A stretch of DNA of 36,576 nt from Adlercreutzia sp. ZJ141 (GTDB taxonomy: Bacteria > Actinomycetota > Coriobacteriia > Coriobacteriales > Eggerthellaceae), in assembly GCF_011038965.1 (NCBI RefSeq), contig NZ_JAAKEB010000022.1, positions 1-36,576 of the forward strand. Reading direction: 5' to 3'. A program made the translations under genes and the position numbers. Below the pieces are notes generated by a model, which had not been told where the DNA came from, did no database searches, and saw only the letters and a list, made by a program, of their open reading frames with translations. Below are positions 17,767 through 36,576 of the stretch, one piece after another; the first letter of the stretch is position 1, and each line of letters starts with the position of its first letter.

Positions 17767-18831
17767 ATGTCAGATATTTCGCCAAATCTGGGATGCAAAA
17801 TGGATAAACAAGGAAAACTCAATGCTTTGTATGCGACAGATGAGGGCTTTGTTGAAGTCCTTATTGTGTCTTTGACCTCGTTGTTTGAAAATAGTTGCAG
17901 GCCTATTCGAGTGTTTGTCATAGAAGACGGGCTTTCTCAAAAGTCTATAAACATGCTTGAAGATCTAGCAACTCATTATTGCCAGGAAATAGAGTTTATT
18001 AAAATACCTGATTATTCCTCAATGTTTGGTCGAGTGATTGATGCAAAAAGATATGCATTGAGTGCGTTCTCTAGGTTGTTTGTATCTTCAATGTTGCCAC
18101 CTGAAATCACAAGGGTTTTATATTTAGACTGTGACACAATTATCTGCGAGGATCTTGGTGATTTGTGGAATACGGATTTGCAGGGTGCTGTTATGGGCGC
18201 TGTGAATGATTGTCGGAGCTACAGATACTCAACAAATCTTGGTTTATCTAGAAACGACGTTTATTTCAATTCGGGAGTTCTAATAATAGATCTCGATTTA
18301 TATCGTAAAGAAGGTATTGAAGAGAGATTTGCGGCGGCCATATTTGAATTTGATGGATTGCTCGAGTTTCCTGATAATGATTTAATTTGCAGGGAATTGG
18401 CCGGTAAAATAAAAGAACTGCATCCTAGGTACAATTTGATTTCAGTCGTTCGTGCGCTGAGTGTTTCCGAGCTTCTTGTGTTTAGGAATCCAGACAACTA
18501 TTACAGCAGCGATCTTGTTGAAGAGGCTAAGAATAACCCCGCTATTGTTCACTACACATCATTCTTCGCGTTTAATGGGAGACCTTGGAACAAAGGGTAT
18601 GACGAATTTGATGGTCGCTTTTTTTCTTGTTATAGGGCGATAAGTTTAGTTCGCGATGTTCCGTTAAGAGTTAATTGGTCTAACTGGGGAAGCAGATCAA
18701 GAATATTGTTTTCGGCCATGCCGAGAGCCGTTTCCCTTCGCTTGTTTGGCTTCGTGCACTCTGTCCTCAAACCAACCGTTCAGTATTTTGCTTTAAAGCG
18801 GTACAAGAAAGCATTTCGTAATGAATTCTGA
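17767..18831 (+). CDS. Glycosyltransferase family 8 protein
   Basis: A 354-aa GT-A retaining glycosyltransferase (LgtC/GspA type, usually using UDP-Glc or UDP-Gal). NALYATDEGFVEVLIVSLTS is the family N-terminus, and the metal-binding DxD is D121-C-D123 in LYLDCDTI. DVYFNSGVLIIDLDLYRKEG and DNDLICRELAGK follow, and VHYTSFFAFNGRPW near 260 is the C-terminal GT8 His block. ATG 17767 is used; ATG 17800 is a possible shorter start. From this gene on, the sequence is clearly AT-richer than the core, with codons unlike its neighbours, pointing to transfer. It overlaps the next gene by 11 bases. Confidence 0.88.
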   Translation: MSDISPNLGCKMDKQGKLNALYATDEGFVEVLIVSLTSLFENSCRPIRVFVIEDGLSQKSINMLEDLATHYCQEIEFIKIPDYSSMFGRVIDAKRYALSAFSRLFVSSMLPPEITRVLYLDCDTIICEDLGDLWNTDLQGAVMGAVNDCRSYRYSTNLGLSRNDVYFNSGVLIIDLDLYRKEGIEERFAAAIFEFDGLLEFPDNDLICRELAGKIKELHPRYNLISVVRALSVSELLVFRNPDNYYSSDLVEEAKNNPAIVHYTSFFAFNGRPWNKGYDEFDGRFFSCYRAISLVRDVPLRVNWSNWGSRSRILFSAMPRAVSLRLFGFVHSVLKPTVQYFALKRYKKAFRNEF

Positions 18832-19927
18832 AAAGATATATTTTGTTATTAACCAGCTTGGCGGTGTTGGCTGCGGTGGATCGGATCGTGTTTTGTCAAT
18901 TTTGGCTAATGAGTTTTCCGAAAACGGATTTGATGTCGAAATACTGTGTTTGCATGATAATGCTAAAATCGACAGGCCGTTAAATGATTCGATTAAAGTG
19001 ACTTTTTTGGATCCAATTAAATGGGGTCGAAAGTCATTGCGTAATATTTCTCGAATTGCTCAGTCCATCAGGCTGGTTTCTCGGGTGGCAAGAGGCTCGA
19101 GTGAAGCGACGTTTATCTCTTTTATTGATTGGGTGAATTTTTGCACGGTAGTTGGTTGCCGAAATACACATAATACTGTCATCGTCTCGGAGCGTACTGA
19201 CCCTAGCAAAGAGCCTGGGAATCGGCTAGCAAAGTGTTTGAGGGACAAGGCATACGCAAAATCTGATGGAATTGTCTTTCAGACTCCTGATGCGCGCGAC
19301 TATTTCAAGGATTCGATTCGATCCAAGAGCACGATTATCTGTAACCCTATAACTGCAAACCTTCCTTCTTGGGGTTTTAATCGAGGCAGCAAAGAAGTTG
19401 TTGCTTTGTGCAGATTAGAGCAGCAGAAGAACATACCTTTGCTTCTCGAAGCATTCGGGCTGTTTCACGAGCACCACTCAGATTACAGACTTGCTATATA
19501 TGGCCAAGGTTCGCTGGAGGCTGAGTTGGCTCAGTTGATAGAAGATATGCGATTATCTCATTCGGTATCTCTGATGGGTTTCACAAAGGATGCACATGAA
19601 GCGATGGTGAATTGTTCCATGTTTGTTAATTCTTCGGATTACGAGGGAATGTCAAATTCTCTTTTGGAGGCTTTAGCGATGGGGGTTCCTGTTGTTTCAA
19701 CTGACTGCCCTGTAGGAGCTGCCAGAATGCTGATTCGAGATGGAGAGAACGGAATACTTGTTCCTGTGGGCTCACCCGAGGATTTGTCCGCTGCGATGGC
19801 AACAATTGCGGATGACGCTAGTTTGGCTTGTCAAATGTCAGAAAGGGCTAAAACGATATACAGGCGGTTGAGCCCGGAATCGATATATAGGCAGTGGGTG
19901 CAATATGTTACTTGGGTGAAAAGCTAG
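18821..19927 (+). CDS. Glycosyltransferase family 4 protein, copy 1
   Basis: A 368-aa GT-B retaining glycosyltransferase (GT4, Glycos_transf_1). The N-terminal domain has INQLGGVGCGGSDRVLSILA, a phosphate-binding-like Gly loop. The C-terminal domain has VALCRLEQQKNIPLLLEAF (nucleotide-binding start), YGQGSLEAELAQLIE and the EX7E region SSDYEGMSNSLLEALAMG with PVVSTDCPVGAARMLI. It starts inside the GT8 gene. It closely resembles the next gene, so the two probably arose by duplication but add different sugars. Donor and acceptor are unknown. Confidence 0.88.
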   Translation: MNSEKIYFVINQLGGVGCGGSDRVLSILANEFSENGFDVEILCLHDNAKIDRPLNDSIKVTFLDPIKWGRKSLRNISRIAQSIRLVSRVARGSSEATFISFIDWVNFCTVVGCRNTHNTVIVSERTDPSKEPGNRLAKCLRDKAYAKSDGIVFQTPDARDYFKDSIRSKSTIICNPITANLPSWGFNRGSKEVVALCRLEQQKNIPLLLEAFGLFHEHHSDYRLAIYGQGSLEAELAQLIEDMRLSHSVSLMGFTKDAHEAMVNCSMFVNSSDYEGMSNSLLEALAMGVPVVSTDCPVGAARMLIRDGENGILVPVGSPEDLSAAMATIADDASLACQMSERAKTIYRRLSPESIYRQWVQYVTWVKS

Positions 19928-19938
19928 GAGACCTGTTG

Positions 19939-21015
19939 ATGAGAATACTGTTTTTGACACATTCTCTATCTAACGGGGGCGCAGAGCGGGTGTCAGCGAA
20001 CATTGCGAACGAGCTTCATCGGCGTGGTGAGATTGTCTCTGTTGTTTCGCTTCAAGATCGCTCGGCGGATTACTCCTTGGATGCGGGGATTAATCATGAA
20101 TGTATCGATACAAGTGGCTCTTTTACTGCTCGAGCAATCTCTAAGCTTATTTCTGTAAATAGTATTGTTGGTGACTTTCGTCCGAATGTGATAGTTAGTT
20201 TGGGCGCAGGCTATCAGTACATTCTGTTTTCGCGTTTGTTTAACAAGTTTTCATTAATAACTTCGTTGAGAAACGATCCGTCCTTTCTATTTGAAGGTCA
20301 TCTAGGTCGATTATTTGTATATAAAGCTGCGTTTAGCGCATCTGATGCAGTTGTGTTTCAGACACAGGAGGCCAAACAGTATTTTTCGCGTAGAGTTCAA
20401 TCAAAGAGCTTCATCATTAGGAATCCTTTGATGGACAATTTGCCGCAGAATCTGAATCCACTTTTTCTTCGCGATAAAGAGTTTGTAAGCTTCGGGAGGC
20501 TTGAACCTCAGAAAAATATAATGATGCTTCTCGAGGCTTTTTCGTTGTTTTGCATTGAAGACAGCGAATACAACTTGACTATTTATGGGCGAGGTTCGCA
20601 AAAGGAAGCTCTAGAAGCAAAAGCGAAATCTCTCGGTTTGGGCGAAAGGGTTCATTTTCTAGATTTCTCAAAGAGCGTTCATTCGAAGATTTTGAATGCT
20701 GTTGCTTTTGTCTCTTCGTCAAACTTTGAGGGGCTTTCGAACTCTATGATTGAAGCAATGGCAATTGGTCTCCCTGTGATTTGTACTGACTGTCCCTGTG
20801 GTGGTGCTAGAGATGTGGTTGGAGAATATAAAAATGGCCTGTTGGCAGAGGTTGGTAATCCCGCGGATTTGTGCAATAAAATGCAACAGCTGATTTACTC
20901 AGGGACTGAATATGAATCATATCTATCGAAGATAGATGATTTGCGTAGGGATTTGTCCTCTTCTGCAATTGTGGAACAATGGCTGAAATTGATAGATGAA
21001 GTCGCCCATGATTAG
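19939..21015 (+). CDS. Glycosyltransferase family 4 protein, copy 2
   Basis: A 358-aa GT4 enzyme. The start ATG 19939 has AGGAG upstream and gives MRILFLTHSLSNGGAERVSA, the usual GT4 beginning. The C-terminal domain has SFGRLEPQKNIMMLLEAFSL, YGRGSQKEALEAKAKSLGL and SSNFEGLSNSMIEAMAIG followed by PVICTDCPCGGARDVV. It is 11 bases after copy 1 and shares its motif spacing, including the EGxSNSxxEA block. It probably adds the next sugar in the same repeat unit. Confidence 0.88.
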   Translation: MRILFLTHSLSNGGAERVSANIANELHRRGEIVSVVSLQDRSADYSLDAGINHECIDTSGSFTARAISKLISVNSIVGDFRPNVIVSLGAGYQYILFSRLFNKFSLITSLRNDPSFLFEGHLGRLFVYKAAFSASDAVVFQTQEAKQYFSRRVQSKSFIIRNPLMDNLPQNLNPLFLRDKEFVSFGRLEPQKNIMMLLEAFSLFCIEDSEYNLTIYGRGSQKEALEAKAKSLGLGERVHFLDFSKSVHSKILNAVAFVSSSNFEGLSNSMIEAMAIGLPVICTDCPCGGARDVVGEYKNGLLAEVGNPADLCNKMQQLIYSGTEYESYLSKIDDLRRDLSSSAIVEQWLKLIDEVAHD

Positions 21016-21601
21016 TAGTAGGCGCGAATACCGTAACTATCTGGAATGCGACGAGTACGCCCGCTTTGGTCATAAGGGTTCAGTATTTGAAAAGCTAAAG
21101 GCTGGAAAATGTTGGAATTATAACGTTTGGTTAAGAAAATGCGAGTATTGGTATAACTGCGGTAAAACACCAATTGCTTCAATTCTGTATTTATTTTGTC
21201 GGATTCGTCTTCGTCAATTGGGTGAAGACATTGGGTGGGAGATTCCGCCTAATGTCTTCGGGCCTGGGCTCTGTGTGGTTCATCGTGGAACCGTTGTTGT
21301 GAGCCCTCACACAAAGGTGGGCGAGAACTGCCGAATGCACGTATGCGTAAATATTGGTGCATGGGGCGGTGAAAAGGCTGCCCCCGTTATGGGAGACAAT
21401 ATTTATATCGGACCGGGTGCGAAGGTTTTTGGGGCTATTTCCATTCCATCTGGTGTTGCGATTGGCGCAAATGCAGTTGTGAATAAAACAATTTGCGAGA
21501 AAAATGTCAGCGTGGGCGGTGTTCCTGCCAAAGTGCTTTCTCGAAAAGGATCAGTGCATATAAACTACTGCGATGAGGTTTGGCCTGATAGGTTGAGATA
21601 G
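21008..21601 (+). CDS. Serine acetyltransferase-like hexapeptide (LbH) acyltransferase
   Basis: A 197-aa protein with a left-handed beta-helix of hexapeptide repeats at ~95-180 (VVHRGTVVVSPHTKVGENC, PVMGDNIYIGPGAKVFG, IPSGVAIGANAVVNKTI). It has the CysE/SAT-like N-helical part MISSRREYRNYLECDEYARF and a catalytic His in CVVHRG. In polysaccharide loci this subgroup O-acetylates sugars with acetyl-CoA, rather than making O-acetylserine. ATG 21008 is preferred because the family begins with MI(S/K)S; ATG 20996 is possible. It overlaps the GT4 stop and shares one base with the next start. Confidence 0.83.
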   Translation: MISSRREYRNYLECDEYARFGHKGSVFEKLKAGKCWNYNVWLRKCEYWYNCGKTPIASILYLFCRIRLRQLGEDIGWEIPPNVFGPGLCVVHRGTVVVSPHTKVGENCRMHVCVNIGAWGGEKAAPVMGDNIYIGPGAKVFGAISIPSGVAIGANAVVNKTICEKNVSVGGVPAKVLSRKGSVHINYCDEVWPDRLR

Positions 21602-22716
21602 TGCTACAAGGGTATTCCACAGAAGGTATTGGCGTCTTAATTTCTGCATTTGGTGTCGCTCTGATTTTTATTGCTGCAGCTTCCAGATCGAAAAAAAAAT
21701 GCAATCAGAGAATCATGCTTTCGATCGCGTTTGTCGTCCTCGTTGGATTCGCGGCCTTAAGGAAGGTGACTATAGCTTATGGTGGTGGAGATGCTTGGGG
21801 GTATGTGAGAGAGTTCCAGTCCTCGTCCGTACTTGGTTCCGGATCGGCGTTTGCTCAGTTATGTGATCTTTCGAGAGAGCCTCTGTACCAATTGATAATG
21901 ATTGTTGTGAGGACGTTTACGGAGAATTACCACCTGTACTTTGTTGTGACCTACGGCATTATCATATGGGGTATCCTATACTTCGTTTCGAACCACTTTC
22001 GCAAAGGCTATCCGTTGTGGCCTCTAATCGTCATGTTCCCTGCGTATATACATTGTTTTAACGCTATGCGTAGCTGGATGGCGATTGCTGTTATCTTGGT
22101 TGCGCTAACCAAGTATGAGAAGCAAGGACCTTTCAAATATGAGCTATATACAACAGCTGCAACTCTAATTCATTACTCGGCTGCAGTGATGCTGCTGCTT
22201 CCTCTGTTCGCTAAGTTCTTTCGAAGATGCGGCGGGATTAAGGGAAAAGTCACAATAGTACTTTTGGCGAATGGCGTGCTGGCGTCAGCAAGCTCTATAT
22301 TGTTGTTCCTACTTCAGAATACAAAATATGTCTACTATTTCTCACTAGATCCATTGAGCTTCTCGACAGTCGTGCCGCTTGTTAGCATTGTATTTCTTGC
22401 TTCGACTGTGTTCCAATCTGCAAACTCTGCTAAACAAGTTGACCGATCAACTATACAAGATTATACGTCTTTTGGATGTTGCCTAGTCTTCGCAATCGTG
22501 TATTTGGGTGGCTACAGGTATCTGAATTATATGATGCTTCCTGAAGCCGTTCTCGTCGCCATGACGTTTCATGATATGCGCATTTGTTGGAGACCGGATC
22601 ATATTAAAAGAATAGGCGTGTCTTTGGTGTTGATTGCACTAGTACTTTTGCTGGCGGTTCAAAATACGGTGTCAGTCATTAAGCTTTCATCTGTTTTTCC
22701 ATATATTATTGGATGA
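21601..22716 (+). CDS. EpsG family polysaccharide polymerase (Wzy-like)
   Basis: A polytopic membrane protein of 371 aa with about ten TM helices, likely polymerising the lipid-linked repeat units outside the membrane. EpsG features include an Arg/Gly/Asp cluster after TM2 (RKVTIAYGGGDAWGYVREF), CFNAMRSWMAIAVILVALTKY, and LIHYSAAVMLLLPLF with the family His. GTG 21601 shares its G with the preceding TAG. No gene follows directly; IS remnants separate it from the second half of the locus. Confidence 0.8.
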   Translation: MLQGYSTEGIGVLISAFGVALIFIAAASRSKKKCNQRIMLSIAFVVLVGFAALRKVTIAYGGGDAWGYVREFQSSSVLGSGSAFAQLCDLSREPLYQLIMIVVRTFTENYHLYFVVTYGIIIWGILYFVSNHFRKGYPLWPLIVMFPAYIHCFNAMRSWMAIAVILVALTKYEKQGPFKYELYTTAATLIHYSAAVMLLLPLFAKFFRRCGGIKGKVTIVLLANGVLASASSILLFLLQNTKYVYYFSLDPLSFSTVVPLVSIVFLASTVFQSANSAKQVDRSTIQDYTSFGCCLVFAIVYLGGYRYLNYMMLPEAVLVAMTFHDMRICWRPDHIKRIGVSLVLIALVLLLAVQNTVSVIKLSSVFPYIIG

Positions 22717-23008
22717 CAAGGTTGAGGATCGATATATGGCCATATTCTCCTGGATTGACCCTCTGGTTCTGTGTACCCGTTGTATTTCTCGACAGGCCTG
22801 GGGCTAGTTATACTTCTAGTGAATAGTCCCTGAAGTGTGATGCTTCGAACCCATGAGCTTTTTAGATCTGCTTTCGAGAGAGGATGAAAGTGATAAACTG
22901 GCTTTGGGGGTATCCAGGATTTAGTGTGGACGATTTGAACAAAAGCTTAGTCTGATCTGCGATGATGAAAGCAAAACACATAAAAGTCGATAGAGAGTCA
23001 CCTAAATT
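22717..23008. other. Gap with no recognisable gene
   Basis: 292 bases after the EpsG gene. No ORF with an RBS, no clear terminator and no repeat are seen. The composition is AT-rich like the gene before it. It ends at an IS-end-like repeat, so it is probably decayed sequence. Confidence 0.5.
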
Positions 23009-23096
23009 AGCCCGCTATTAGGGCGCACCTACCTAAGCCCCTTGCAGGGGAATTTCAAAATAGTGGTGTTAAACCTTAAAAATCTAGACCAAATGC
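23009..23096. repeat. IS-end-like repeat, copy A
   Basis: An 88-base sequence beginning AGCCCGCTATT and containing TTGCAGGGGAATT, AGTGGTGTTAAACCT and AAAAATCT, with about 12 differences from copy B (35793-35879) in the same orientation. It lies 39 bases past the stop of the transposase remnant, the position expected for the right end of that element. Confidence 0.75.
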
Positions 23097-23134
23097 CTCA
23101 CCTCCAACAGGTTGGAGGGTTCGCAATTTGCGGC

Positions 23135-23515
23135 CTACTTGTTGTGGTTGGGCAGTGCCACTCCTCCCTTATCGAGTGCGGGATAGCCATATGCAAGCAA
23201 AAGGCGACGTCTCATGTTCTTGTAGTTTGTAAACCCGCAAGCTCGGCGTTTCATGTCCTTGATCTTGCGGTTGACGTTTTCGGCATAAGCGTTGGTCTTT
23301 CCCGTCATATAAGCGTTTACGATGTATTCCTTTACGCCCTTGATACTGTTTGCAGCAGTAGCAAACTCTTTGATTCCGCAGTTTTGAGCCTGGCTTATCC
23401 AGTTACCAAGGGCTCTTAATGTTGACGGTTCCCTTGCGTCCCATATTGGGCTCCTTTTCCGGGATGCAGGGTGCCAGCCCGCGGCGGCGGGTGCTGTCCG
23501 CTGCCGCGGAATCAA
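23135..23515 (-). pseudogene. ISL3-type transposase, C-terminal remnant
   Basis: Only the last ~95 residues read as an ISL3-family DDE transposase: LGNWISQAQNCGIKEFATAA, then TNAYAENVNRKIKDMKRRAC, where AENVN corresponds to the family's final catalytic Glu region, and the Arg-rich GFTNYKNMRRRLLLAYG. The first ~30 residues of the open frame are GC-rich non-family sequence containing a CCGCGGC/GCCGCGG hairpin (about 23479-23511), so the true 5' part is gone. Downstream lies the IS-end-like repeat copy A. It splits the polysaccharide locus in two. Confidence 0.75.
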
Positions 23516-23696
23516 TTATAGGATGCAGGTTTATGGCGCCTTACATCCCTTGTTCTCAAATGGTGATATTAAGCCTGCATCCTGTGTCTTATGCTAGGTC
23601 GCATGATGAGGATTTCGCACACACTCAATCCAGAAGGGTTGGGTGTACACACAAAACCTTATGGGAAAGCTGTGTATGGCTTGTGAAAGGTCAGAA

Positions 23697-23829
23697 ATGA
23701 GAACTGAACCACATGAAATCCAGAACACCCAAAAACCCCGCTTTGATAGTGGTCAACCGCTAGACCACCTCTCTGAGTGTCGATGAGATGGAAAAGGTCT
23801 ACATGCGGGATTTGTTCAAGTGGGAGTAA
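23697..23829 (+). pseudogene. Short broken ORF upstream of the ATP-grasp gene
   Basis: ATG 23697 is preceded by GAAAGGTCAGAA, nearly identical to the RBS and start region of the glycosyltransferase at 25387 (GAAAGGCCAGAAATGAGAA). The frame runs 29 codons to TGA 23784. The next frame then continues with SVDEMEKVYMRDLFKWE to TAA 23827. This looks like a small gene broken by a frameshift. No function can be given. Confidence 0.3.
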
Positions 23830-23888
23830 CTCCAAAAGCCATAATCGACTTCTTGGAGGAGCCTGAAATCGAAGAAAGGATACCTGCA

Positions 23889-24833
23889 ATGAAAAGAACC
23901 CTGTTCGAAAGGGTGAAGTACCGATTACGCAAGTCTTGTTATGACGCTTGTCATCCGGATTATGCCAAGAAATATGCAAATCGCTTTTTGCCCTCCTTCA
24001 GTCAGAGCGATTTGGAATGTTGCGTCAGGCACTTGTATGAGTTCAGAATGCGGAAGAAATTGGACTTAGACAATGTGAGTACTTTCAACGAAAAGCTCAA
24101 CTGGCTCAAATGCTTCTATCACGATGATAGGATGACCGAATGCGCAGACAAGGTGACGGCCCCAAAGTACTTTGAGGAGCAAACTGGTCTTGGCGATTCC
24201 TATATCGTGCGTAATATTGGTGTATTTCGTTCGGCATCCGAAATCAACTTCTCTTTGCTGCCCGATGAATATGTTTTAAAGTCAAACTGGGGATCAGGAA
24301 GGCAACTGATTGTAAGAAGCGGTGATAACGTTGACGTTGAGGGGATCAGGGAAGAAATCGCCTCATGGGTTGATCTTTCTACGAACCATTACTACCACGG
24401 TTTCGAGTATGGGTATAAAAACATCGAGCCGCGAATCGTTTGCGAAGAATTCATTGATTTTGAATACAAACTAGAGTTCTTTTGTTTTAACGGTAAACCA
24501 TGCTATTTCTGGACAGTGTTTAATGATAAGACCGATGACGTTTGTGCAAATTTCTTTGATGCTAATACACTTGAACAGATTGACTTGAGACACGGATATC
24601 CAAATTCGTCAAAGACCATTGATATCCCTGCCTATTACGGTGATATGTTTAATATTGCTGAGAAGTTGGCGTCTGATTTTCCGTTTGTGAGGATAGATTT
24701 CTATAAGACCTCAGACAGTTTTAAATTCTCTGAGATGACCTTCTATCATTGGTGTGGGTTAATGCCTTTTGATCCAGAGTCTTTTGATCTGGAATTTGGT
24801 AAAAGAATCCAGTTGCCCGCTAAAATGCTATAG
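23889..24833 (+). CDS. TupA-like ATP-grasp protein
   Basis: A 314-aa protein of the ATP-grasp TupA type, common in capsule and teichuronopeptide loci, where it is thought to ligate an amino acid or other carboxylate to the glycan. STFNEKLNWLKCFYHDDRM and CADKVTAPKYFEEQTG form the family N-part. YVLKSNWGSGRQLIV is the ATP-binding loop, IVCEEFIDFEYKLEFFCFNG the central strand, and FPFVRIDFYKTSDSFKFSEMTF carries the Mg-binding Asp and Glu. ATG 23889 with AAAGGA upstream is preferred to the GTG at 23820, because MKRTLFERV looks like a true start. The substrate is unknown. Confidence 0.82.
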   Translation: MKRTLFERVKYRLRKSCYDACHPDYAKKYANRFLPSFSQSDLECCVRHLYEFRMRKKLDLDNVSTFNEKLNWLKCFYHDDRMTECADKVTAPKYFEEQTGLGDSYIVRNIGVFRSASEINFSLLPDEYVLKSNWGSGRQLIVRSGDNVDVEGIREEIASWVDLSTNHYYHGFEYGYKNIEPRIVCEEFIDFEYKLEFFCFNGKPCYFWTVFNDKTDDVCANFFDANTLEQIDLRHGYPNSSKTIDIPAYYGDMFNIAEKLASDFPFVRIDFYKTSDSFKFSEMTFYHWCGLMPFDPESFDLEFGKRIQLPAKML

Positions 24834-24845
24834 CGTGCATGGTGG

Positions 24846-25106
24846 TCATCTAAGAACTGGTAGACATTCAGATTTCGGGACGGAGCAAAAATAGAGATAG
24901 TAATGAGGACCCGAAAGCGTCTTGGCGCACAGTGCGTACCATTCGCTATGCTCATTTTGTTTGATCCTTCCAAGTGCAGAAAGCTCGACTTCGTGTGCGG
25001 TAAGCACTCTTCCATCGGGCTTTGTACACTCACTTGCGTATGTGTCAGGAAGTAAGCCTTGTGTGTACGCAAGTCTCCTTTTCTTATTGGCCTCTCTGCC
25101 GTTCAT
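24846..25106 (-). CDS. Possible small protein of unknown function (86 aa)
   Basis: An open frame within the 550-base gap, opposite in strand to the locus. The sequence (MNGREANKKRRLAYTQGLLP, then LTAHEVELSALGRIKQNEHS) has a protein-like composition and an AAAGGA about 20 bases upstream. It matches no family I know. It could be a passenger of a mobile element, since IS-end-like sequence lies nearby. The rest of the gap holds a G7 run (25145-25151) and a long palindrome. Confidence 0.3.
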   Translation of the reverse strand: MNGREANKKRRLAYTQGLLPDTYASECTKPDGRVLTAHEVELSALGRIKQNEHSEWYALCAKTLSGPHYYLYFCSVPKSECLPVLR

Positions 25107-25297
25107 AGGAGTTCTCTAATCCTTTGATGACGCAGATGCCGCAAGGGGGGGTGTGGGGTGGTGCTAGCACCTTACACCTCTCGTATATTCGCTTCCGATA
25201 CGCTATCGGAAATCGTTGTTAATAGATGCAATCGGAAGCTTGACACAATCATGAAAGTGACCACATGAAATCGCAATACCCCAGTTCAGGTCATGTG

Positions 25298-25330
25298 AGC
25301 AACACTACTCTCCACGAGAGTAGTGTTGCT
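25298..25330. repeat. Perfect 15-bp palindrome with 3-base loop
   Basis: AGCAACACTACTCTC (25298-25312) and GAGAGTAGTGTTGCT (25316-25330) are exact complements around CAC. No T tract follows, so it is not a canonical terminator, though it could stall or protect a transcript. It is 30 bases from an IS-end-like motif and 57 bases before the next gene. Confidence 0.8.
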
Positions 25331-25360
25331 GAACCAAAAATGGAGCAGAAATTGGCAAAA

Positions 25361-25380
25361 CAACACCAGATTCAGAAAGG
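25361..25380. repeat. IS-terminus-like motif (also at 35999-36018)
   Basis: CAACACCAGATTCAGAAAGG here and CAACACCAGTTTCAGAAAAA at 35999-36018 agree at 17 of 20 positions. The reverse complements of repeats A and B contain a similar AACACCAC..TTTTG, so all four may be ISL3-type terminal sequences. A shorter match, GATTCAGAAAAGCC, occurs near 31289. Confidence 0.4.
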
Positions 25381-25386
25381 CCAGAA

Positions 25387-26475
25387 ATGAGAATTCTGCT
25401 ACTTGGAGAATTTAGTGGCCTATACAAGAACTTGAAACATGGCCTTATTGAATTGGGGCACGAGGTAACTCTACTTGCTGATGGCGACGGCTGGAAGCAA
25501 ATACCGGGTGCCGACGGGCCTTTGAAGGTGGGTGACAGATCTCGACTCATCGACAAAGTCGGTCGTAATCTCTCCCTTCTGAAAGATGAGCGTTTAATAG
25601 GCTACGATGCTGTGTTTCTTGTGGCGTATAGGATATTCAACCCGTTTGTGGCAGAGCACATGGTGCGGTTCTTGAGAAAGAACAACGGGTCTGTTTTATT
25701 AAGTGCAGCGGGAGGTGGACTTGCGTACGATCAGGCGTACCTCAGTGGAAGATTTGATTACTCACCATATGATGGAAATCCTTGCGATTGCTCTTATGTA
25801 GCATGTGGATCCAGCCTTAGAAGTAAGCTAATTGAACGAGAACGTCGAGTTGTTGAAAAATACTTTTGTGAGGTTATACCTGTCATGTGGGAGTACCAGA
25901 TTGGCTTCGATGACTGGGCTGTCCCCCACGATAGTTGCATCCCTCTTCCAGTCGATGTTTCTGAATGCGATTACGTTCCAAATATCCCCCAGGACAAGAT
26001 TGTCATCTTCCATGGTATTAACAGAGAAGAAGAAAAAGGTACACCAATTATTCGTGAAGCCTTGGCTCGTATCGAAAGAGATTACTCCAACGATGTGGAG
26101 GTCATAATCGATGGGCGAATGCCCTATGAGAAGTACCTCTCGGTGATTCAACGAGCCAATGTTGTCATCGATCAGTGTCGTGCGTACGGATATGGCCTTA
26201 ACGCCTGCGTCTCTATGGCGCAGGGGAAGGCCGTTCTGAGTGGGGCAAGGGACGAGACTCTCGAAGCATTCGGAATAAAACGGAAGGATTGTCCTATTCT
26301 GCCCATAGAGCCCGATTCCGATCAAATATGCAGACAGCTCAAGTGGGTTATCGAGCATAGGAACCAGATACCAGGGATCGGCATTAGAAGCCGCGCGTAC
26401 ATCGAAAAATACCATGACTCTATCAAGATTGCGGGGCAATACGTTGACGTAATCAAGAAACATACGAAAGGCTGA
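25387..26475 (+). CDS. Glycosyltransferase (GT-B fold)
   Basis: A 362-aa protein with a GT-B look. The N-terminus MRILLLGEFSGLYKNLKHGL and ELGHEVTLLADGDGWKQIPG form the acceptor domain. The C-terminal half has IVIFHGINREEEKGTPIIRE and ALARIERDYSNDVEVIIDG, YGYGLNACVSMAQGKAVLSG in place of the usual EX7E block, and a final helix IEKYHDSIKIAGQYVDVI. It belongs to a divergent GT4-like group of capsule loci. The RBS is AAAGG, seven bases upstream. GC content is back to intermediate, unlike the 17.8-22.7 kb block. It starts a tight run of genes to 31,197. Confidence 0.75.
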   Translation: MRILLLGEFSGLYKNLKHGLIELGHEVTLLADGDGWKQIPGADGPLKVGDRSRLIDKVGRNLSLLKDERLIGYDAVFLVAYRIFNPFVAEHMVRFLRKNNGSVLLSAAGGGLAYDQAYLSGRFDYSPYDGNPCDCSYVACGSSLRSKLIERERRVVEKYFCEVIPVMWEYQIGFDDWAVPHDSCIPLPVDVSECDYVPNIPQDKIVIFHGINREEEKGTPIIREALARIERDYSNDVEVIIDGRMPYEKYLSVIQRANVVIDQCRAYGYGLNACVSMAQGKAVLSGARDETLEAFGIKRKDCPILPIEPDSDQICRQLKWVIEHRNQIPGIGIRSRAYIEKYHDSIKIAGQYVDVIKKHTKG

Positions 26476-31309: not shown

Positions 31310-32146
31310 TTGAGCACACTTCGGATGGTTCGTGTGGGAAAGAAGCAACAAAAGAGAATTCGAAATTCACTCGGAATTGAGGTTGAACAGCTCAATTTCC
31401 TCCGTACTAGCTTTAGGAGTGAGTTATGCGCGCTTATTCCTGAGGATGAAGCTGTCGAATCTATTCTTAAGGCGGTATTGGACGAAACAGGCTGGGAGGA
31501 TCATTCGGGAAAGGAAGTCGCTCCGCCTGATTTCGTCGATCATGAGCGGCGCGTTATGATCGAAGCCATGCGGGTAGATGACCATGAGAGACCGGGAGAC
31601 AAGAAAGGGCTCATCAATCCATCGAAGGCGCACGAGGGCGAGATAATCAAGCGGTATGAACGCGAATTTGGCAAGCTGTTGGATACGGCAGCCGGCAATG
31701 CTAGGTTGACCGTACTGGGCAATACCGACCTGCCGACGGAAGATGATCATAGTTACAGCATGTATCTCAACAGCTTCAAACGAATCGTCAAAAAGCATGC
31801 AAGTCACGCGAACGATTATCGGCGTAACTACCCTGGATACAAACTTGTCTTCTATGTTTTCGATGAATCGACAGGCTATTTCGAAAGTACCACCGCAGTT
31901 AAACACGGTGCACGTGCAGGGGACTGCATGCTTGGCCGACCGCATTCATTTTATGCCGATACAGCGTTTCTTAATACCATCAGAAACTCCAATGCAGATT
32001 ATTTTCTCTGGTACACGCCCTTCAAGCACGAGCATTTGTTTGCTAAGGGACTTGTTTTGCCCGAGCTTGTTGTGTATGACGTAAGAAGGATGGACGTACC
32101 AGAGTATTGCTATGATCCGAGGCGAATGGTGAGTACAGAGGTCTAA
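31310..32146 (+). CDS. Unrecognised 278-aa protein upstream of the SLATT-RT module
   Basis: I do not recognise a family. The protein is soluble and highly charged. Possible catalytic residues are scattered: HERRVMIEAMRVDDHE, EGEIIKRYEREFGKLLD, then a beta-rich KLVFYVFDESTGYFES and DYFLWYTPFKHEHLF. An E..D/E..K-like arrangement could hint at a nuclease, but no motif is convincing. TTG 31310 or ATG 31325 may start it; the RBS is poor. It is AT-richer than the polysaccharide genes before it and follows a junction-like gap. It ends 119 bases before the putative RNA, so membership in the defence module is only positional. Confidence 0.7.
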   Translation: MSTLRMVRVGKKQQKRIRNSLGIEVEQLNFLRTSFRSELCALIPEDEAVESILKAVLDETGWEDHSGKEVAPPDFVDHERRVMIEAMRVDDHERPGDKKGLINPSKAHEGEIIKRYEREFGKLLDTAAGNARLTVLGNTDLPTEDDHSYSMYLNSFKRIVKKHASHANDYRRNYPGYKLVFYVFDESTGYFESTTAVKHGARAGDCMLGRPHSFYADTAFLNTIRNSNADYFLWYTPFKHEHLFAKGLVLPELVVYDVRRMDVPEYCYDPRRMVSTEV

Positions 32147-32265
32147 CGAAATCGCAGTTTGCGACGGATGATGAAAACCGTGCAAAAGACCACACGAATT
32201 AGCGGTTACCCAAAACGACCTGCGTTCAGAGGGTGCACGAGATATGGGGCTGCTGGTATCATATC

Positions 32266-32403
32266 TTGAGAGGCAGCGCTGGCATCGTTGTGATGTCGGG
32301 CGTCAGGTTTGATTGGCGTCATTGGTTAGCTGTGGCCATTGGCTCATTGGACTCCTAGGATGTTCTAGGGGTATTGTTAGGTTCGTTTGGCGCTGCCTCT
32401 TGA
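32266..32403 (+). ncRNA. Candidate structured RNA of the SLATT-RT module
   Basis: AGAGGCAGCGC (32269-32279) pairs exactly with GCGCTGCCTCT (32390-32400). G.U and A-U pairs extend the helix to 32266-32282 with 32387-32403. Inside, GGCATC/GATGTC (32281-32286, 32292-32297) forms a 5-base-loop hairpin, and ACTCCTAGGA/TTCTAGGGGT (32351-32372) a second hairpin. Between them lie ATTGGCGTCATTGG (32312) and ATTGGCTCATTGG (32338). The structure ends 5 bases before the SLATT RBS. A TATCAT (32256-32261) could be its -10. Several antiviral RT groups carry a template RNA just upstream, so this is a candidate template or cofactor RNA. A leader controlling SLATT translation is the alternative. Confidence 0.5.
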
Positions 32404-32420
32404 ATTGTAGGGTGATGGGT

Positions 32421-32975
32421 ATGGTAGAGGCTGAGAATAAATTCAATTATCTTCCAGGGCTTATCAAAAATACTAGAAAATCTAGGATAGAGGCTGAGCG
32501 GCGGCTACTTCGGCTCGATGCACTTTCCAAACACGCAAGTGTTTACTACGCGTGTTTGACTGCCCTATTATCTCTTTCCTCCGTGTTTTTGGATTACAAA
32601 GGATTACCCTTCCTTTCTGTCGCTTCTGCTGTTGTGGTCGCTATATGTACTGTGTATGCATCGACGCAAAACTATGGTGTTAGAGCCGAACAAATGAAGG
32701 AGTGTTATATCGAGCTGCAGAAATTACTTCTAAAGCTTGATGATAAGCGCACCCTTGAAGATGGCGAGGCTCAGGAAGTTGCTAATCAGGTAGGCGAATG
32801 CTACGTCGAAATCATTCGTCGCACTGAGAATCATCTCCTTCGTGATTATTTATTAGCAACGGGGTCTAATAATGAGACGAAAGAGCAGTTACGCTGGTTC
32901 GCTCTAAGGGTATGTGTCTACGTAGTTCCCGTTTTAGTAGCTTTTGTTTTTTCGTGGGCAGTTTGGTCATTCTGA
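32421..32975 (+). CDS. SLATT domain membrane protein (putative defence effector)
   Basis: A 184-aa protein with the SLATT layout: an N-terminal basic helix (LIKNTRKSRIEAERRLLRLD), two close TM helices (~39-57 and 62-80), a long cytoplasmic helix with QNYGVRAEQMKECYIELQKL, and a further hydrophobic C-terminal helix (~163-183). SLATT proteins are predicted pore-forming effectors of nucleotide- or RT-linked immunity. ATG 32421 with TAGGGTG seven bases upstream is chosen; ATG 32415 lies within that RBS. The stop shares a base with the RT start (TGATG), so effector and RT are made together. The structured RNA sits right upstream. Confidence 0.78.
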   Translation: MVEAENKFNYLPGLIKNTRKSRIEAERRLLRLDALSKHASVYYACLTALLSLSSVFLDYKGLPFLSVASAVVVAICTVYASTQNYGVRAEQMKECYIELQKLLLKLDDKRTLEDGEAQEVANQVGECYVEIIRRTENHLLRDYLLATGSNNETKEQLRWFALRVCVYVVPVLVAFVFSWAVWSF

Positions 32976-34312
32976 TGCAGGCTGCGGAATCGTTTTCTAG
33001 GCGCTTCAAGCCCGCAGCACTCACCGCCACATTTGTGGCGGAAGTGGGGATTAGCTCCGCTGTGGGTATTGACAAAGTGACAGGAAAGAAGTTCAGAGAT
33101 AGCTTGACGTCCGAAATTGATTTGATTTCGGTCAAAGCACTTAATGGAAGCTATAACTTCACTAACTACCGGCAGCTTCTTATGACGAAAGGGCCCGCAG
33201 AGCCACCGCGAGAATTATGTATCCCAACCATACGTGATAAAGTTACACTAAAAGCTCTCTCCAATGTTCTGGATGATGTTTATGGCGAGGCTTGCAAGAC
33301 CCCTCAACCGCAACCTATCGTGCAGGCTCTGTTTGACAATCTTCGTAAGGGAGAGTTTGACAGTTACGTTAAGCTGGACATCAAGCGTTTCTATGCATCA
33401 GTAGATCACAATATGCTCTTTCGTGTACTGAGACGCAAGATAAGAAAGAAAGAGCTCCTGTCAATTATTGAGCGCGCTATCTCAACCCCGTCAACGCCAG
33501 TAGGTATGAGAGCCCGCAAGAGAAGGACTGAAGGCATACCCGAAGGGTTACCGATCTCAAATAAGCTTGCAAATATCTATGTTGAGAGTATAGATGCCGC
33601 TTTTGCAGCGGACAAAGCAGTCAAGTATTATCGGTATGTCGATGACATTATCGTTCTTTGCAATAGCTATGATATTGAGCGAGTAGAGCAAACAGCGGAA
33701 CGCTTAGTGAAAAGGCTGAGTTTAGAACTTCATCCTGAGAAAAAACGATCAGGTTTCATTGGTAAAAGTTCATACGAATATTTGGGCTATGTGTTTAGGG
33801 TTGGTGGAATTGCTCCTCGAAAGAAGTCTGTACTCAATCTGACAAGATGGCTCGAGTCGCATATGAGGGCGTATCGAAATACGAACAACAAACGCTATTG
33901 GCAATGGAAGCTTTGTTTGAGGATAACAGGATGTCGCATCACTGAGGACGGCGTCTCGTTTAATCGTTTTGGTTGGCTTTTCTACTTCTCTCAATCGACA
34001 GATGCAGCATTGCCTCATAAGCTGGATGCTCTAGTGGTAAAGTTCGCAAAGCGATATGGGGTTGATCTGCCAAACGATCTTCCAACATTTAGCAGGAGCT
34101 ACTATGAAATACACTATCGCAATGGCGAAGGATCCTATATTCAACTGATTGACTTTTCTATTGACTCTTCACGAAAAAGAGAGATTCTGTTCCAGCTCTA
34201 TGGCGGCGATTTTGTTCGGGAGCTTACGGAAGACAATATCGACGCAGTGTTCAAACGAAGGATGCTTCAAGAAGCTAAAACGTTAGAGCGTGATGTCGGA
34301 GCCACATCCTAA
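32975..34312 (+). CDS. Reverse transcriptase, antiviral UG/DRT type
   Basis: An RNA-directed DNA polymerase of 445 aa. The fingers block is RELCIPTIRDKVTLKALSNV (~79-98). Motif A is YVKLDIKRFYASVDH (131-145, metal Asp D135), motif B GIPEGLPISNKLANIYVES, and motif C YYRYVDDIIVL (YVDD 221-224). ELHPEKKR and YEYLGYVFRVGG follow. About 165 residues after the palm form an alpha-rich C-terminal domain. There is no maturase or HNH domain, so it is not a group II intron RT, and retron NAxxH is not seen. Coupling to SLATT recalls the UG17/DRT10 group; this is recalled knowledge. ATG 32975 overlaps the SLATT stop. Confidence 0.88.
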   Translation: MQAAESFSRRFKPAALTATFVAEVGISSAVGIDKVTGKKFRDSLTSEIDLISVKALNGSYNFTNYRQLLMTKGPAEPPRELCIPTIRDKVTLKALSNVLDDVYGEACKTPQPQPIVQALFDNLRKGEFDSYVKLDIKRFYASVDHNMLFRVLRRKIRKKELLSIIERAISTPSTPVGMRARKRRTEGIPEGLPISNKLANIYVESIDAAFAADKAVKYYRYVDDIIVLCNSYDIERVEQTAERLVKRLSLELHPEKKRSGFIGKSSYEYLGYVFRVGGIAPRKKSVLNLTRWLESHMRAYRNTNNKRYWQWKLCLRITGCRITEDGVSFNRFGWLFYFSQSTDAALPHKLDALVVKFAKRYGVDLPNDLPTFSRSYYEIHYRNGEGSYIQLIDFSIDSSRKREILFQLYGGDFVRELTEDNIDAVFKRRMLQEAKTLERDVGATS

Positions 34313-34408
34313 CACGGAAATTTAGGTCTGTCGCAGGCTATCTTTCACGGCAGCGATGCACCAGTAACCCACCGAGCTGATTCACTACTGGGGTAAAGAG
34401 CGCTGCAC

Positions 34409-34437
34409 TTGGAAAACTCCTGTTTGAGTGGTAACAT
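34409..34437 (+). promoter_or_regulatory. Promoter of the dCTP-deaminase-like module
   Basis: TTGGAA (34409-34414) and TAACAT (34432-34437) with a 17-base spacer, 68 bases before the GTG start. A CCAGTA/TACTGG pairing (34361-34366, 34386-34391) just upstream may mark the end of the RT transcript. This makes the three following genes a separate unit. Confidence 0.5.
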
Positions 34438-34504
34438 CTTCCTTCGGCAGATTATGAGTCGTAGATGATAAATGCTGCCACGTCGGTCGGAAAGGAGTAA
34501 TGCG

Positions 34505-35113
34505 GTGCTTTTAAGCGATAAGGGAATTCGATCCTTACTCGACGGTGGTCATGATCTTATAACTCCTTTTGATGAAAAGAAGCTCCAATCTGCCTCGTAC
34601 GACCTGACTTTAGGATCGCAGATCGCTGCGATAGAGTCGCGTGCTTCGACTGTATATCTATCCCAACAAGAAGTGCTAGATGAGTCGTATGTTCCTGTCG
34701 ATATTACTGAGGGCGTGATTGTTAAGCCTGGGCAGTACGTTCTCGCTTCTATTCGTGAGACAGTGAATCTTCCCGACAACCTTGCGGCAAGAGTTATTGC
34801 TCGTACGCGGTTTACACGTCTGGGACTTCTCGTTGCTGAGCAGTATTGTAATCCAAGCTATTCGGGGCGGTTGCAATTGGGGCTGTATAATGCGTCGCCA
34901 AATAATATAGCGCTTGTTGAGGGTCTTGAGATCGCGCAGATTGTTTTCATTACACTAGATCAGGATCCTACCGAAGAGAAGCTGTATCGTAATAGTGAAA
35001 CTGCGGTTTATCAGAATGAGTCGGTTTTTATGGGCGCGCAATTTGGTAATGACTCTCTTTCGGAGGGTGCCAGACGCGTATACGATGCCATGATGCAGGA
35101 TTTGATGGCCTAG
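34505..35113 (+). CDS. dCTP deaminase/dUTPase-fold protein lacking the catalytic Glu
   Basis: A 202-aa protein of the Dcd/dUTPase fold. LLSDKGIRSLL and SASYDLTLGSQI are Dcd-like N-terminal blocks. VKPGQYVLASIRETVNLPDN and LAARVIARTRFTRLGLLV give the strand and nucleotide-binding Arg. PSYSGRLQLGLYNASPNNIA and GLEIAQIVF follow. In active Dcd the segment after the SG reads LE(F/L)xN, with Glu as general base (E138 in E. coli); here it is G126. The dUTPase catalytic Asp is also absent (CNPSY). It may bind a deoxynucleotide without converting it. GTG 34505 with AAGGAG is used. The next gene starts 1 base after the stop. Confidence 0.8.
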   Translation: MLLSDKGIRSLLDGGHDLITPFDEKKLQSASYDLTLGSQIAAIESRASTVYLSQQEVLDESYVPVDITEGVIVKPGQYVLASIRETVNLPDNLAARVIARTRFTRLGLLVAEQYCNPSYSGRLQLGLYNASPNNIALVEGLEIAQIVFITLDQDPTEEKLYRNSETAVYQNESVFMGAQFGNDSLSEGARRVYDAMMQDLMA

Positions 35114-35114
35114 T

Positions 35115-35561
35115 ATGGGACAGAAGCTTGACCGGTTGATTTCGAGTTTTGCTGAAGGCTATAAGGATAGGTCTTCAGATGCGAATGTTTATGCAGCCGC
35201 GAAACGACTTGAGTCTGAAATAGTTCAAGAAATATGCGAGGAGCAGGCTGAGCGTATTGCGAACAATGCAGAACGAATCCGTGCGAATGAGTCCGCTCGA
35301 GCCGCTCTTCGGGAAGCGAAAACTGTAGTTCTGCAATGCGTTGGTTTTGCGTTGCTGGTCGGCTTGCTGAGTAATCATGTGTACAGTCTTCTTCAGGTCG
35401 TAATTTACCAGGGAGCAGAGGGGCTGAACGTTGGGAATATGCTCGGGGGCACCGCTGTTCTGCTGATTCTTTGTGTTGCATGTGTCGGTTGGTTTATGAT
35501 TTCACGGGTTTCTGAGGTTATTGATGTATTTAAGGCCGCTACGTCCAAGGGAAATGACTAG
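35115..35561 (+). CDS. Unrecognised two-TM membrane protein
   Basis: A 148-aa protein. Residues ~1-70 form a charged, Ala/Glu/Arg-rich helix, probably coiled coil (RLESEIVQEICEEQAERIAN). TM helices are at ~75-95 and ~107-130, with a short basic tail. This plan (cytoplasmic coiled coil plus two TMs) resembles small membrane effectors of defence modules, but no family signature is seen. ATG 35115 begins one base after the Dcd-like stop, so the two are coupled and probably act together. Confidence 0.7.
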   Translation: MGQKLDRLISSFAEGYKDRSSDANVYAAAKRLESEIVQEICEEQAERIANNAERIRANESARAALREAKTVVLQCVGFALLVGLLSNHVYSLLQVVIYQGAEGLNVGNMLGGTAVLLILCVACVGWFMISRVSEVIDVFKAATSKGND

Positions 35562-35564
35562 AAC

Positions 35565-35786
35565 ATGGACGAGCTCTTAGGACTGTATCGACATTTTAAA
35601 GGAAATTTATATCGTGTTGTGTCTATGGCAACTCACTCCGAATCGGGGGAGTTGTATGTCGTGTATGTTGCCTTAAACGATAAGAAGACCTATGTTAGGC
35701 CAGCGGAAATGTTTTTCAGTGATGTTGATAGATCCAAATACCCCAACTGTGCGCAAACGAAACGTTTTGAAAGAATTGGCGATTAG
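35565..35786 (+). CDS. DUF1653 domain protein
   Basis: A 73-aa protein that is essentially one DUF1653 domain: LLGLYRHFKGNLYRVVSMAT, HSESGELYVVYVALNDKKTY and VRPAEMFFSDVD. The domain folds as a small beta barrel and is widespread; its role is unknown. ATG 35565 comes 3 bases after the two-TM gene stop, as the last gene of the module. It is often found as a stand-alone small protein, so it may be a passenger. Confidence 0.8.
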   Translation: MDELLGLYRHFKGNLYRVVSMATHSESGELYVVYVALNDKKTYVRPAEMFFSDVDRSKYPNCAQTKRFERIGD

Positions 35787-35792
35787 ATACTC

Positions 35793-35879
35793 AGCCCGCT
35801 ATTGGGGCACACCTGTCCTAACCTTTTGCAGGGGAATTCCAAAAAAGTGGTGTTAAACCTCAAAAATCTTGACCAAATA
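35793..35879. repeat. IS-end-like repeat, copy B
   Basis: Same orientation and about 86% identical by eye to copy A at 23009-23096. The conserved cores are AGCCCGCTATT, TTGCAGGGGAATT, AGTGGTGTTAAACCT and GACCAAAT. It begins 7 bases after the DUF1653 stop. Confidence 0.75.
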
Positions 35880-36173
35880 CGTTCAGCTCGCGCATCTTCA
35901 CTCCTGCCGACGGTTTCTCAGGGCCTTTCCGAAATCTGTGTTGCCGATAGGCTTAAAACATTAACTTGACCAGGCGATATGCGTGAGTTTTAAGGCGGCA
36001 ACACCAGTTTCAGAAAAAACAGGATGGTTTTTGGGCGCACTGGCAGATACCCTTGAATTTTAGGGCTTTAAACACAAGCTATGAGATGCAGCTTTACAAC
36101 TAGAAATACAACATCATGTGACTCTAGGTCCAGGCGGGCTTCTGGGTACAGACAGGTGTGCCATGTCTATCCT
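35880..36173. other. Gap with IS-terminus-like sequence, no gene
   Basis: 294 bases between repeat B and the transposase stop. It contains GGCAACACCAGTTTCAGAAA (35997-36016), which resembles the motif at 25361 and may be the right end of the ISL3-type element that follows on the minus strand. No ORF with an RBS is seen. Confidence 0.5.
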
Positions 36174-36576
36174 TTAGTGCTTCTTCTTACTTCTCTTGGA
36201 AGGTTTGGAAGCATAAGCGCTTACACGCGCCTTCTTTCTTCTTTCATAGGCAGTAGCACCCTCAACAGCATCCAGCGCACCAAAGGCCAAAAGAAGTCGT
36301 CTTCTGGTTTCATCGAAGGTGCCAAACCCGCGGCTTTCGCGCTTGAGTTCTTTGATCTTGTCGTTGGTCGATTCTGCTCGAGCGGTGTTGATGTGGCTTA
36401 TCGTGGCAGTTACCAAGTACTGCTGGTACTTCGCGACCGTTTTGGCAAAGCGTCGCATCTCAGGTACCTCAAGCCCACTTGCCTTCATGATCCAGTTGTT
36501 GAGGGCCTTCTCGCATTCCTGTCTATCAGTCCAGGGATGGTCTTGCCATATGTAGTAGAGTTGAAGTACCAGATAG
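36174..36576 (-). CDS. ISL3-type transposase, C-terminal part (runs off the window)
   Basis: The frame stays open to the window edge, giving at least 133 residues. LYYIWQDHPWTDRQECEKAL and NNWIMKASGLEVPEMRRFAK are the alpha-helical insertion part of an ISL3 DDE transposase. INTARAESTNDKIKELKRES carries the final catalytic Glu, followed by the Arg-rich RGFGTFDETRRRLLLAFGA. The tail is very basic (SKRSKKKH). It is clearly related to, but distinct from, the remnant at 23135. Whether the element is intact depends on sequence outside the window. Confidence 0.82.
   Translation of the reverse strand, partial: YLVLQLYYIWQDHPWTDRQECEKALNNWIMKASGLEVPEMRRFAKTVAKYQQYLVTATISHINTARAESTNDKIKELKRESRGFGTFDETRRRLLLAFGALDAVEGATAYERRKKARVSAYASKPSKRSKKKH

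What the first reader, a model, noticed from the sequence alone, without database searches (positions are those of the whole stretch)
32266..32403. Compact structured RNA directly upstream of a SLATT-reverse transcriptase operon
Two 11-base arms 110 bases apart are exact complements, and the helix grows to 17 bp with G.U pairs. It encloses two further hairpins and ends just before the SLATT RBS. Several antiviral RT groups depend on an adjacent noncoding RNA as template. The location and fold fit that role, so the module may be RNA + SLATT + RT. I recall SLATT being linked to the UG17 (DRT10) group, but group membership here is inferred.
Basis: partly seen in the sequence, partly recalled or inferred. 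Interest (0 to 1): 0.87.

Follow-up and report, generated by a model that had tools for sequence, protein, structure and literature searches.

The report
DRT10 antiviral RNA, SLATT and RT
An Actinomycetota genome carries a three-part module (folded template RNA, membrane protein, reverse transcriptase) that fits the recently described telomerase-like anti-phage system DRT10, so it is a well-supported new member of a known kind rather than a new kind.

Summary
Bases 32269-32279 and 32390-32400 are exact 11-nt complements 110 nt apart, forming a 15-17 bp helix (32266-32403) around four small hairpins; no shuffle equalled helix (0 of 300) or fold (0 of 200). The helix is under selection: in five Coriobacteriales operons it pairs through changes on both sides. 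In 54 of 81 SLATT-RT operons the region ahead of SLATT holds a long helix beating all 20 own shuffles (4 of 81 in a coding control). In five operons with RT first, such a helix lies ahead of RT (clear in four).

The RT is UG17 (434 bits; next model 121) beside SLATT_5: DRT10, published October 2025 (PMC12632851). That work describes a 137-nt RNA ahead of SLATT, a template loop after SL5, and priming from a C-terminal Ser or Tyr. The window has a 138-nt RNA, a loop after its last hairpin, and an RT ending in Ser445.

Predicted product: protein-linked tandem-repeat ssDNA, perhaps (GAACCTAAC)n; the unit is uncertain. Transcription, RT binding, repeat synthesis and defence are inferred. New member of a known kind; modest interest.

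The parts
32254..32262 (+). extended -10-like element TG-G-TATCAT just before the RNA's 5' end (inferred promoter)
   Evidence: sequence; a -10-like hexamer starts 18 to 8 nt before the helix in 46 of 55 distinct loci tested, against 12, 13, 15 and 20 of 55 at four control offsets; no full sigma-70-type match there
32266..32403 (+). predicted DRT10 template RNA (138 nt)
   Evidence: fold z = -4.79; covariation; model R1 finds it as its only match in the own genome, but the window is one of the model's four seeds; no Rfam match
32266..32280 (+). closing helix P1, 5' arm
32389..32403 (+). closing helix P1, 3' arm
32281..32297 (+). hairpin SL2
   Evidence: 2 of 5 counted pairs change on both sides in five sequences
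32299..32320 (+). hairpin SL3
   Evidence: fold only
32323..32338 (+). hairpin SL4
   Evidence: fold only
32351..32372 (+). hairpin SL5, counterpart by position of the published template-boundary stem-loop
   Evidence: role from PMC12632851
32373..32388 (+). predicted template loop AUUGUUAGGUUCGUUU
   Evidence: position between SL5 and P1; the MFE pairs 32380-32383 with 32341-32344, the centroid does not
32376..32387 (+). predicted A-B-A' pattern GUU-AGGUUC-GUU (9-nt unit, cDNA 5'-GAACCTAAC-3'); a GUU at 32381-32383 allows 4- or 5-nt units instead
   Evidence: a 3-base repeat in this loop alone is expected by chance (0.80 of shuffles)
32409..32414 (+). Shine-Dalgarno-like AGGGTG of SLATT
   Evidence: sequence
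32421..32975 (+). SLATT_5 membrane protein (alternative start 32415)
   Evidence: PADLOC RTasSLATT 120 bits, Pfam SLATT_5 90 bits, NCBIfam SLATT_5 110 bits
32975..34312 (+). UG17 / DRT10 reverse transcriptase, 445 aa; its ATG overlaps the SLATT stop (TGATG)
   Evidence: PADLOC RT_UG17 434 bits over residues 1-444
33635..33646 (+). YVDD catalytic motif, residues 221-224
   Evidence: invariant in the 56-row alignment (the genome scan itself used a RYVDD pattern)
34307..34309 (+). C-terminal Ser445 codon, predicted priming residue
   Evidence: over all 87 operons 70 RTs end in Ser and 9 in Tyr

Best explanation
This is a DRT10 (UG17) anti-phage module. Shown here: a selected RNA fold, a SLATT_5 gene and a UG17 RT with YVDD and a C-terminal Ser, in the published order. 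Inferred from the published relatives: the 138-nt RNA is made from the -10 element at 32257, binds the RT, and presents the loop 32373-32388. The RT starts a DNA chain on Ser445, copies the short template up to the SL5 boundary, then slips: the new 3' end re-pairs with the downstream A' copy and is extended again. The product is a long protein-linked tandem-repeat ssDNA, perhaps (GAACCTAAC)n (about even odds for that exact unit). This DNA restrains or triggers the SLATT membrane protein, so that infection leads to membrane damage and stops phage spread; that last step is a proposal in the published work too. The confidence given is for DRT10 membership and templated repeat synthesis, not for the exact repeat or the SLATT step.
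For: RT: UG17 434 bits, next-best model 121. SLATT. Published DRT10 anatomy: PMC12632851; RNA 138 versus 137 nt, same position. Covariation in five sequence-aligned operons: 95.3% of cells paired versus 37-60% when slid; 8 of 17 pairs changed on both sides. Unselected survey: in 54 of 81 operons the upstream helix beats all 20 own shuffles, versus 4 of 81 for a same-length stretch of the RT gene measured against the same thresholds. RT-first operons: a helix lies ahead of RT, 0 of 200 shuffles as good in four of five. Repeats starting near SL5: 26 of 33 loops versus 17.8 expected. C-terminal Ser or Tyr in 79 of 87. RT model pLDDT 93 with an RT fold; [quoted passage not shown]
Against: No transcript, RT binding, cDNA or defence data. 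The A-B-A' pattern in the window alone is not above chance (0.80 of shuffled loops); across loops, 4-base repeats are not clearly enriched (12 of 33 versus 9.2, 74 of 500 shuffles). The MFE pairs four template-loop bases. In 27 of 81 operons the upstream helix does not beat all 20 shuffles. On the five-sequence alignment the number of further pair types is no higher than in shuffles (331 of 500), and L042's free fold over 291 nt does not close the helix. Model R1 reached E < 0.01 only in its four seeds and L042. The tail with Ser445 is poorly modelled (residues 443-445 pLDDT < 50). The nearest relatives are only 38-41% identical in the RT.
Confidence: 0.9

Rival explanations
1. The structure is a regulatory 5' leader of the SLATT-RT mRNA (attenuator or translation switch) and not a template.
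For: It ends 5 nt before the Shine-Dalgarno-like stretch, and the scan shows no forward promoter match between it and SLATT.
Against: In RT-first operons a similar RNA precedes RT instead (clear in four of five), so it is not tied to SLATT. Three published DRT10 RTs pull down an RNA at this position. Loops with repeats starting near SL5 fit a template.
Confidence: 0.05
2. It is a retron: the long helix would be the a1/a2 repeat pair of an msr-msd RNA (retron anatomy recalled).
For: Long inverted repeats flank a folded RNA ahead of an RT.
Against: The only retron model listed by NCBIfam at E 0.001, retron St85, gives 43.9 bits against a cut-off of 235; UG17 gives 434 bits (best 25 of 80 families shown).
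Confidence: 0.02
3. It is a DRT9-like system that makes homopolymer DNA.
For: DRT9 also has an upstream RNA, occasionally SLATT, and a similar RNA shape.
Against: PADLOC Drt9 52 bits versus UG17 434. No poly-U tract in the loop, whose longest run is UUU.
Confidence: 0.02

Closest known systems
DRT10 (UG17) anti-phage system, PMC12632851
   Same: RNA of about 137 nt ahead of SLATT-RT; large closing stem with four smaller stem-loops; template loop downstream of SL5; UG17 RT; YVDD; C-terminal Ser or Tyr
   Different: different host lineage; RT 38-41% identical to the nearest relatives fetched here (not aligned to the published RTs); own template sequence; nothing tested in cells
DRT9 (UG28), PMC12483538 (passages)
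   Same: upstream RNA of similar shape, protein priming, occasionally SLATT; related RT fold
   Different: template is a conserved poly-U tract and the product a homopolymer; RT profile scores far lower
DRT3a of DRT3, PMC13174585 (passages)
   Same: RNA-templated short-repeat DNA; related RT (104 bits)
   Different: works with a second RT that makes the other strand; the own genome gave no second match to this RT at E 0.001
Telomerase
   Same: by the published argument, a short template with an alignment copy and a template boundary
   Different: primes on chromosome ends; not compared directly here

Membership tests
DRT10 (UG17) | RT of the UG17 group | tested here: met
   RT_UG17 434.1 bits over 1-444; next 121.1; no tree built
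DRT10 (UG17) | YVDD catalytic motif | tested here: met
   residues 221-224
DRT10 (UG17) | SLATT gene beside the RT | tested here: met
   SLATT_5 directly upstream, stop and start overlap. A SLATT profile also hits the fetched DNA of 86 of 87 operons, six of which trained it
DRT10 (UG17) | about 137-nt RNA ahead of the operon with a closing stem and four smaller stem-loops | tested here: met
   138 nt, helix plus four hairpins; covariation of helix and first hairpin. Transcription itself not tested
DRT10 (UG17) | A-B-A' pattern just after SL5 | tested here: inconclusive
   GUU-AGGUUC-GUU is present but such a repeat is expected by chance in one loop; 3-base repeats enriched over 33 usable of 53 loops, 4-base repeats not
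DRT10 (UG17) | conserved C-terminal priming Ser (Tyr in some) | tested here: met
   Ser445 is the last residue; 70 of 87 operons end in Ser, 9 of 87 in Tyr. That it primes is not tested
DRT10 (UG17) | RT binds the RNA, makes tandem-repeat cDNA, protects from phage | not testable with these tools
   needs experiments
Retron | retron-type RT | tested here: not met
   the one retron model listed (St85) scores 43.9 bits against a cut-off of 235
DRT9 | poly-U template tract in the loop | tested here: not met
   loop AUUGUUAGGUUCGUUU, longest run UUU

The most novel reading that the evidence does not exclude
The template RNA is the 5' leader of the operon's own message, whichever gene comes first, and serves twice: as template, and as a switch that ties translation of the first gene (here the membrane protein) to RT binding or to cutting the RNA loose. 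Support: in the window the helix ends 5 nt before the Shine-Dalgarno-like stretch, with too little room for a separate promoter and no forward match found, and in RT-first operons the RNA lies ahead of RT (clear in four of five).
Probability: 0.15. Interest if true: 0.6.

Novelty: new member of a known kind. Interest (0 to 1): 0.33.

Why it matters
It places a complete DRT10 module in Coriobacteriales, where UG17 is rare (6 of 395 genomes of the order at E <= 1e-60), and gives a precise test: a named candidate repeat DNA and a named priming residue. The RNA adds independent evidence that the closing helix is kept by structure rather than sequence. The system is of wide interest because its discoverers link it to the origin of telomerase, and how its repeat DNA acts on SLATT is still open in that paper.

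Tried and rejected
A first complementarity test on 46 operons is not used as evidence, because I had picked those that looked well placed; only its test of the window is used. One search repeats it on 81 of 87 without choosing (six dropped for too little upstream sequence). Its coding control was measured against shuffles of the upstream stretch, not of itself.

A joint alignment of Coriobacteriales and Clostridia RNAs (A3) did not line up the helices and was dropped. A Clostridia alignment (A7) was made but not counted. Model R1 on four sequences gave 11 matches up to E 1 in 87 sources: four seeds, L042 at 2.7e-5, four Rhizobium loci (L036, L102, L104, L105) ahead of the RT but only at E 0.19, and two (L116, L119) outside the operon and probably chance. 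I did not build a wider model.

For the repeat count I took distinct RNAs with helix score 27 or more: one had no usable hairpin, and 20 of the other 53 had loops outside 10-32 nt and were left out. Several of the 33 kept are close relatives, so they are not independent. There P1 was forced to full length, so the window's loop counted as 14 nt and its repeat as the 5-nt one, not the 9-nt one I favour.

RT relatives: none in viral contigs (close relatives only) or phages (E 1e-20); seven plasmid records, all under 60% identity. In the phylum 18 of 396 genomes match UG17 at 1e-40, most at 140-190 bits; I did not work out what those are. Telomerase is not among the 50 rows shown; that is no evidence of difference. 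No forward sigma-70-type match lies before SLATT; only the -10 part is supported. Three neighbours (31310-32143, the dCTP deaminase-like gene, the 148-aa protein) have no tblastn match at 1e-3 in the other fetched loci (flanks at most 2.5 kb); the DUF1653 gene was given in a wrong frame there and so was not tested. A megablast of 32200-34400 found no plasmid.

Full report
What was checked. The stated arms are there: 32269-32279 and 32390-32400 are exact 11-nt complements with 110 nt between, and the helix grows to 17 pairs with G.U and A-U. The MFE fold of 32264-32405 uses 15 of them and adds four hairpins, plus a 4-bp pairing of 32341-32344 with 32380-32383 that the centroid lacks. It is beyond chance: 0 of 300 dinucleotide shuffles reached the helix score, and fold z = -4.79 with 0 of 200 shuffles as stable. 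Rfam has no matching family (at gathering scores, at E <= 1).

What the genes are. The protein at 32975-34312 scores 434 bits with PADLOC RT_UG17 over residues 1-444; the next model, a general RT, scores 121. It carries YVDD at 221-224 and ends in Ser445. The gene before it is SLATT_5; its TGA overlaps the RT's ATG (TGATG). UG17 and SLATT_5 go together in print: 82% of UG17 RTs in PMC8934634 (passages).

What it matches. PMC12632851 (bioRxiv, October 2025; seen: outline, text parts 1-4 of 8 and the first of two parts of the figure legends) renamed UG17 as DRT10. It found by RT pull-down a 137-nt RNA upstream of SLATT, modelled with a large central stem-loop carrying four smaller ones, a template loop after SL5 with an A-B-A' pattern, and protein priming from a C-terminal Ser (likely Tyr in Eco1). 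Defence was lost without the RNA, without SLATT or with a dead RT. The window has the elements that sequence can show: RNA length (138 nt), position, fold, UG17 RT, SLATT, and Ser at the very C-terminus. The A-B-A' pattern is the exception: present but not above chance by itself.

Is the RNA conserved? The closest are Olsenella, Thermophilibacter, Enorma, Collinsella and a Coriobacteriaceae MAG, with RTs 38-41% identical. The genomes behind these five loci (G547-G551) give the same places and scores as five genomes that one search lists as 'same order' as the window, and NCBI puts Collinsella, Olsenella and Enorma in Coriobacteriales; so the window is of that order. Its family is not named by the tools. 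In a sequence-based alignment of five RNAs (window, L040-L043; A4) the closing helix and first hairpin have 95.3% of cells paired, 8 of 17 pairs with changes on both sides and a covariation score of 0.682. Sliding the partner strand by 1-3 columns gives 37-60% paired and scores of 0.11-0.25. Of 500 shuffles 0 reach the percentage or the score and 1 the number of pairs changed on both sides, but 331 reach the number of further pair types. Five related sequences are few, and the structure was derived from them, which favours the true register. L042's free fold over 291 nt did not close the helix.

A wider test without choosing loci: of 87 operons (window + 86), 81 had enough upstream sequence. 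In 54 of 81 the best helix in the stretch 420-900 nt before the RT beats all 20 of its own shuffles; a same-length stretch of the RT gene exceeds the same thresholds in 4 of 81; the upstream score is the larger in 74 of 81. A SLATT profile hits 86 of 87 (the miss, L099, is cut by the contig end), and in five the hit lies after RT. Four of these five are among the 27 misses. In the five, the 280 nt directly ahead of RT hold a long helix: 0 of 200 shuffles as good in L064, L074, L114 and L118, 8 of 200 in L045. So the RNA appears to go with the operon's front end and not with SLATT.

Start and template. A -10-like hexamer starts 18 to 8 nt before the helix in 46 of 55 distinct loci, against 12, 13, 15 and 20 of 55 at four control offsets further upstream; in the window it is TG-G-TATCAT at 32254-32262. 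No full sigma-70-type match was found there. The template loop, 32373-32388, reads AUUGUUAGGUUCGUUU. GUU at 32376 and 32385 gives a 9-nt unit (cDNA GAACCTAAC), but another GUU at 32381 allows 5- or 4-nt steps, like the cryptic site that blurs Eco1 repeats. Such a repeat occurs in 0.80 of shuffles of this loop, so it is a prediction and not evidence. Over 33 usable of 53 loops, 3-base repeats starting within 5 nt of SL5 occur in 26 of 33 versus 17.8 +/- 2.5 in shuffles (0 of 500) and anywhere in 29 of 33 versus 23.2 (3 of 500); 4-base repeats are not clearly enriched (12 of 33 versus 9.2, 74 of 500; near SL5 9 of 33 versus 6.3, 75 of 500); 5-base repeats near SL5 4 of 33 versus 1.5 (23 of 500). 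In that count the window's loop was 14 nt and held only the 5-nt-spaced repeat.

Priming residue and fold. Over all 87 operons 70 RTs end in Ser and 9 in Tyr, the other 8 in G, V, Q or R (45 and 5 of the 56 aligned). A model from 49 sequences has mean pLDDT 93.3, but residues 443-445 are under 50, so the place of Ser445 cannot be read from it. Solved-structure matches are led by a group II intron RT (Z 28.5), then a DGR RT (27.3), with DRT9 (Z 22.7, 364 aligned, rmsd 3.5) and DRT2 (Z 21.3, 326 aligned, rmsd 3.1) lower: the general RT fold, no more.

Rarity. UG17 at E <= 1e-60 occurs in 1 of 138 genomes of the family, the window's own, and 6 of 395 of the order. GC is 0.45-0.47 across 32001-36000 versus 0.55-0.63 in the first 17 kb of the window; it is also low, 0.40-0.48, across 18001-26000, so this fits acquired DNA but is not special to the module.

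Mechanism and limits. The most likely working is as published for DRT10; the steps from RNA to defence are inferred from relatives. How the DNA acts on SLATT is open in print: the authors propose that it modulates a membrane effector and note that cDNA falls on infection. PMC12483538 (passages) cites a study in which sbcB (ExoI) is essential in E. coli strains with UG17, in line with harmful ssDNA. Searches of the held library: DRT10, SLATT with RT, UG17, and a four-term search from 2025; I saw no study of this operon in the rows listed (8, 20 of 820, 8, and 15 of 365). The paper's supplementary tables, which may list relatives of this operon, were not open to me.

Noticed in passing
L045, L064, L074, L114, L118: DRT10 operons with reversed gene order (RT first, SLATT after); a folded RNA then lies ahead of RT, clear in four of five.
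   Followed up: partly
34370-34501: This stretch between the RT and the dCTP deaminase-like gene has a copy (122 of 133 columns identical) on another contig of the same genome (C48:161931-162063, minus strand), with no obvious gene attached there.
   Followed up: partly
34505-35783: A dCTP deaminase-like gene (Pfam DCD 109 bits), a 148-aa protein with membrane-like stretches by eye, and a DUF1653 gene lie directly downstream. dCTP deaminases can be anti-phage (recalled). The first two gave no PADLOC hit and no match in the other fetched loci; DUF1653 was not tested so.
   Followed up: partly
31310-32143: 278-aa protein just upstream with no match in PADLOC, Pfam, NCBIfam or PHROGs.
   Followed up: partly
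23138-23515 (-) and 36177-36575 (-): Two partial ISL3-type transposase reading frames flank the region with the DRT10 module and, by eye, glycosyltransferase genes. The window's frame at the right end runs off the window.
   Followed up: no
35793-35878 and 35922-36000: The first has an 87% copy at 23009-23094 and one on contig C10; the second has copies on contig C53 and in two genomes of the family (G022, G016), suggesting spread repeats or IS ends.
   Followed up: no
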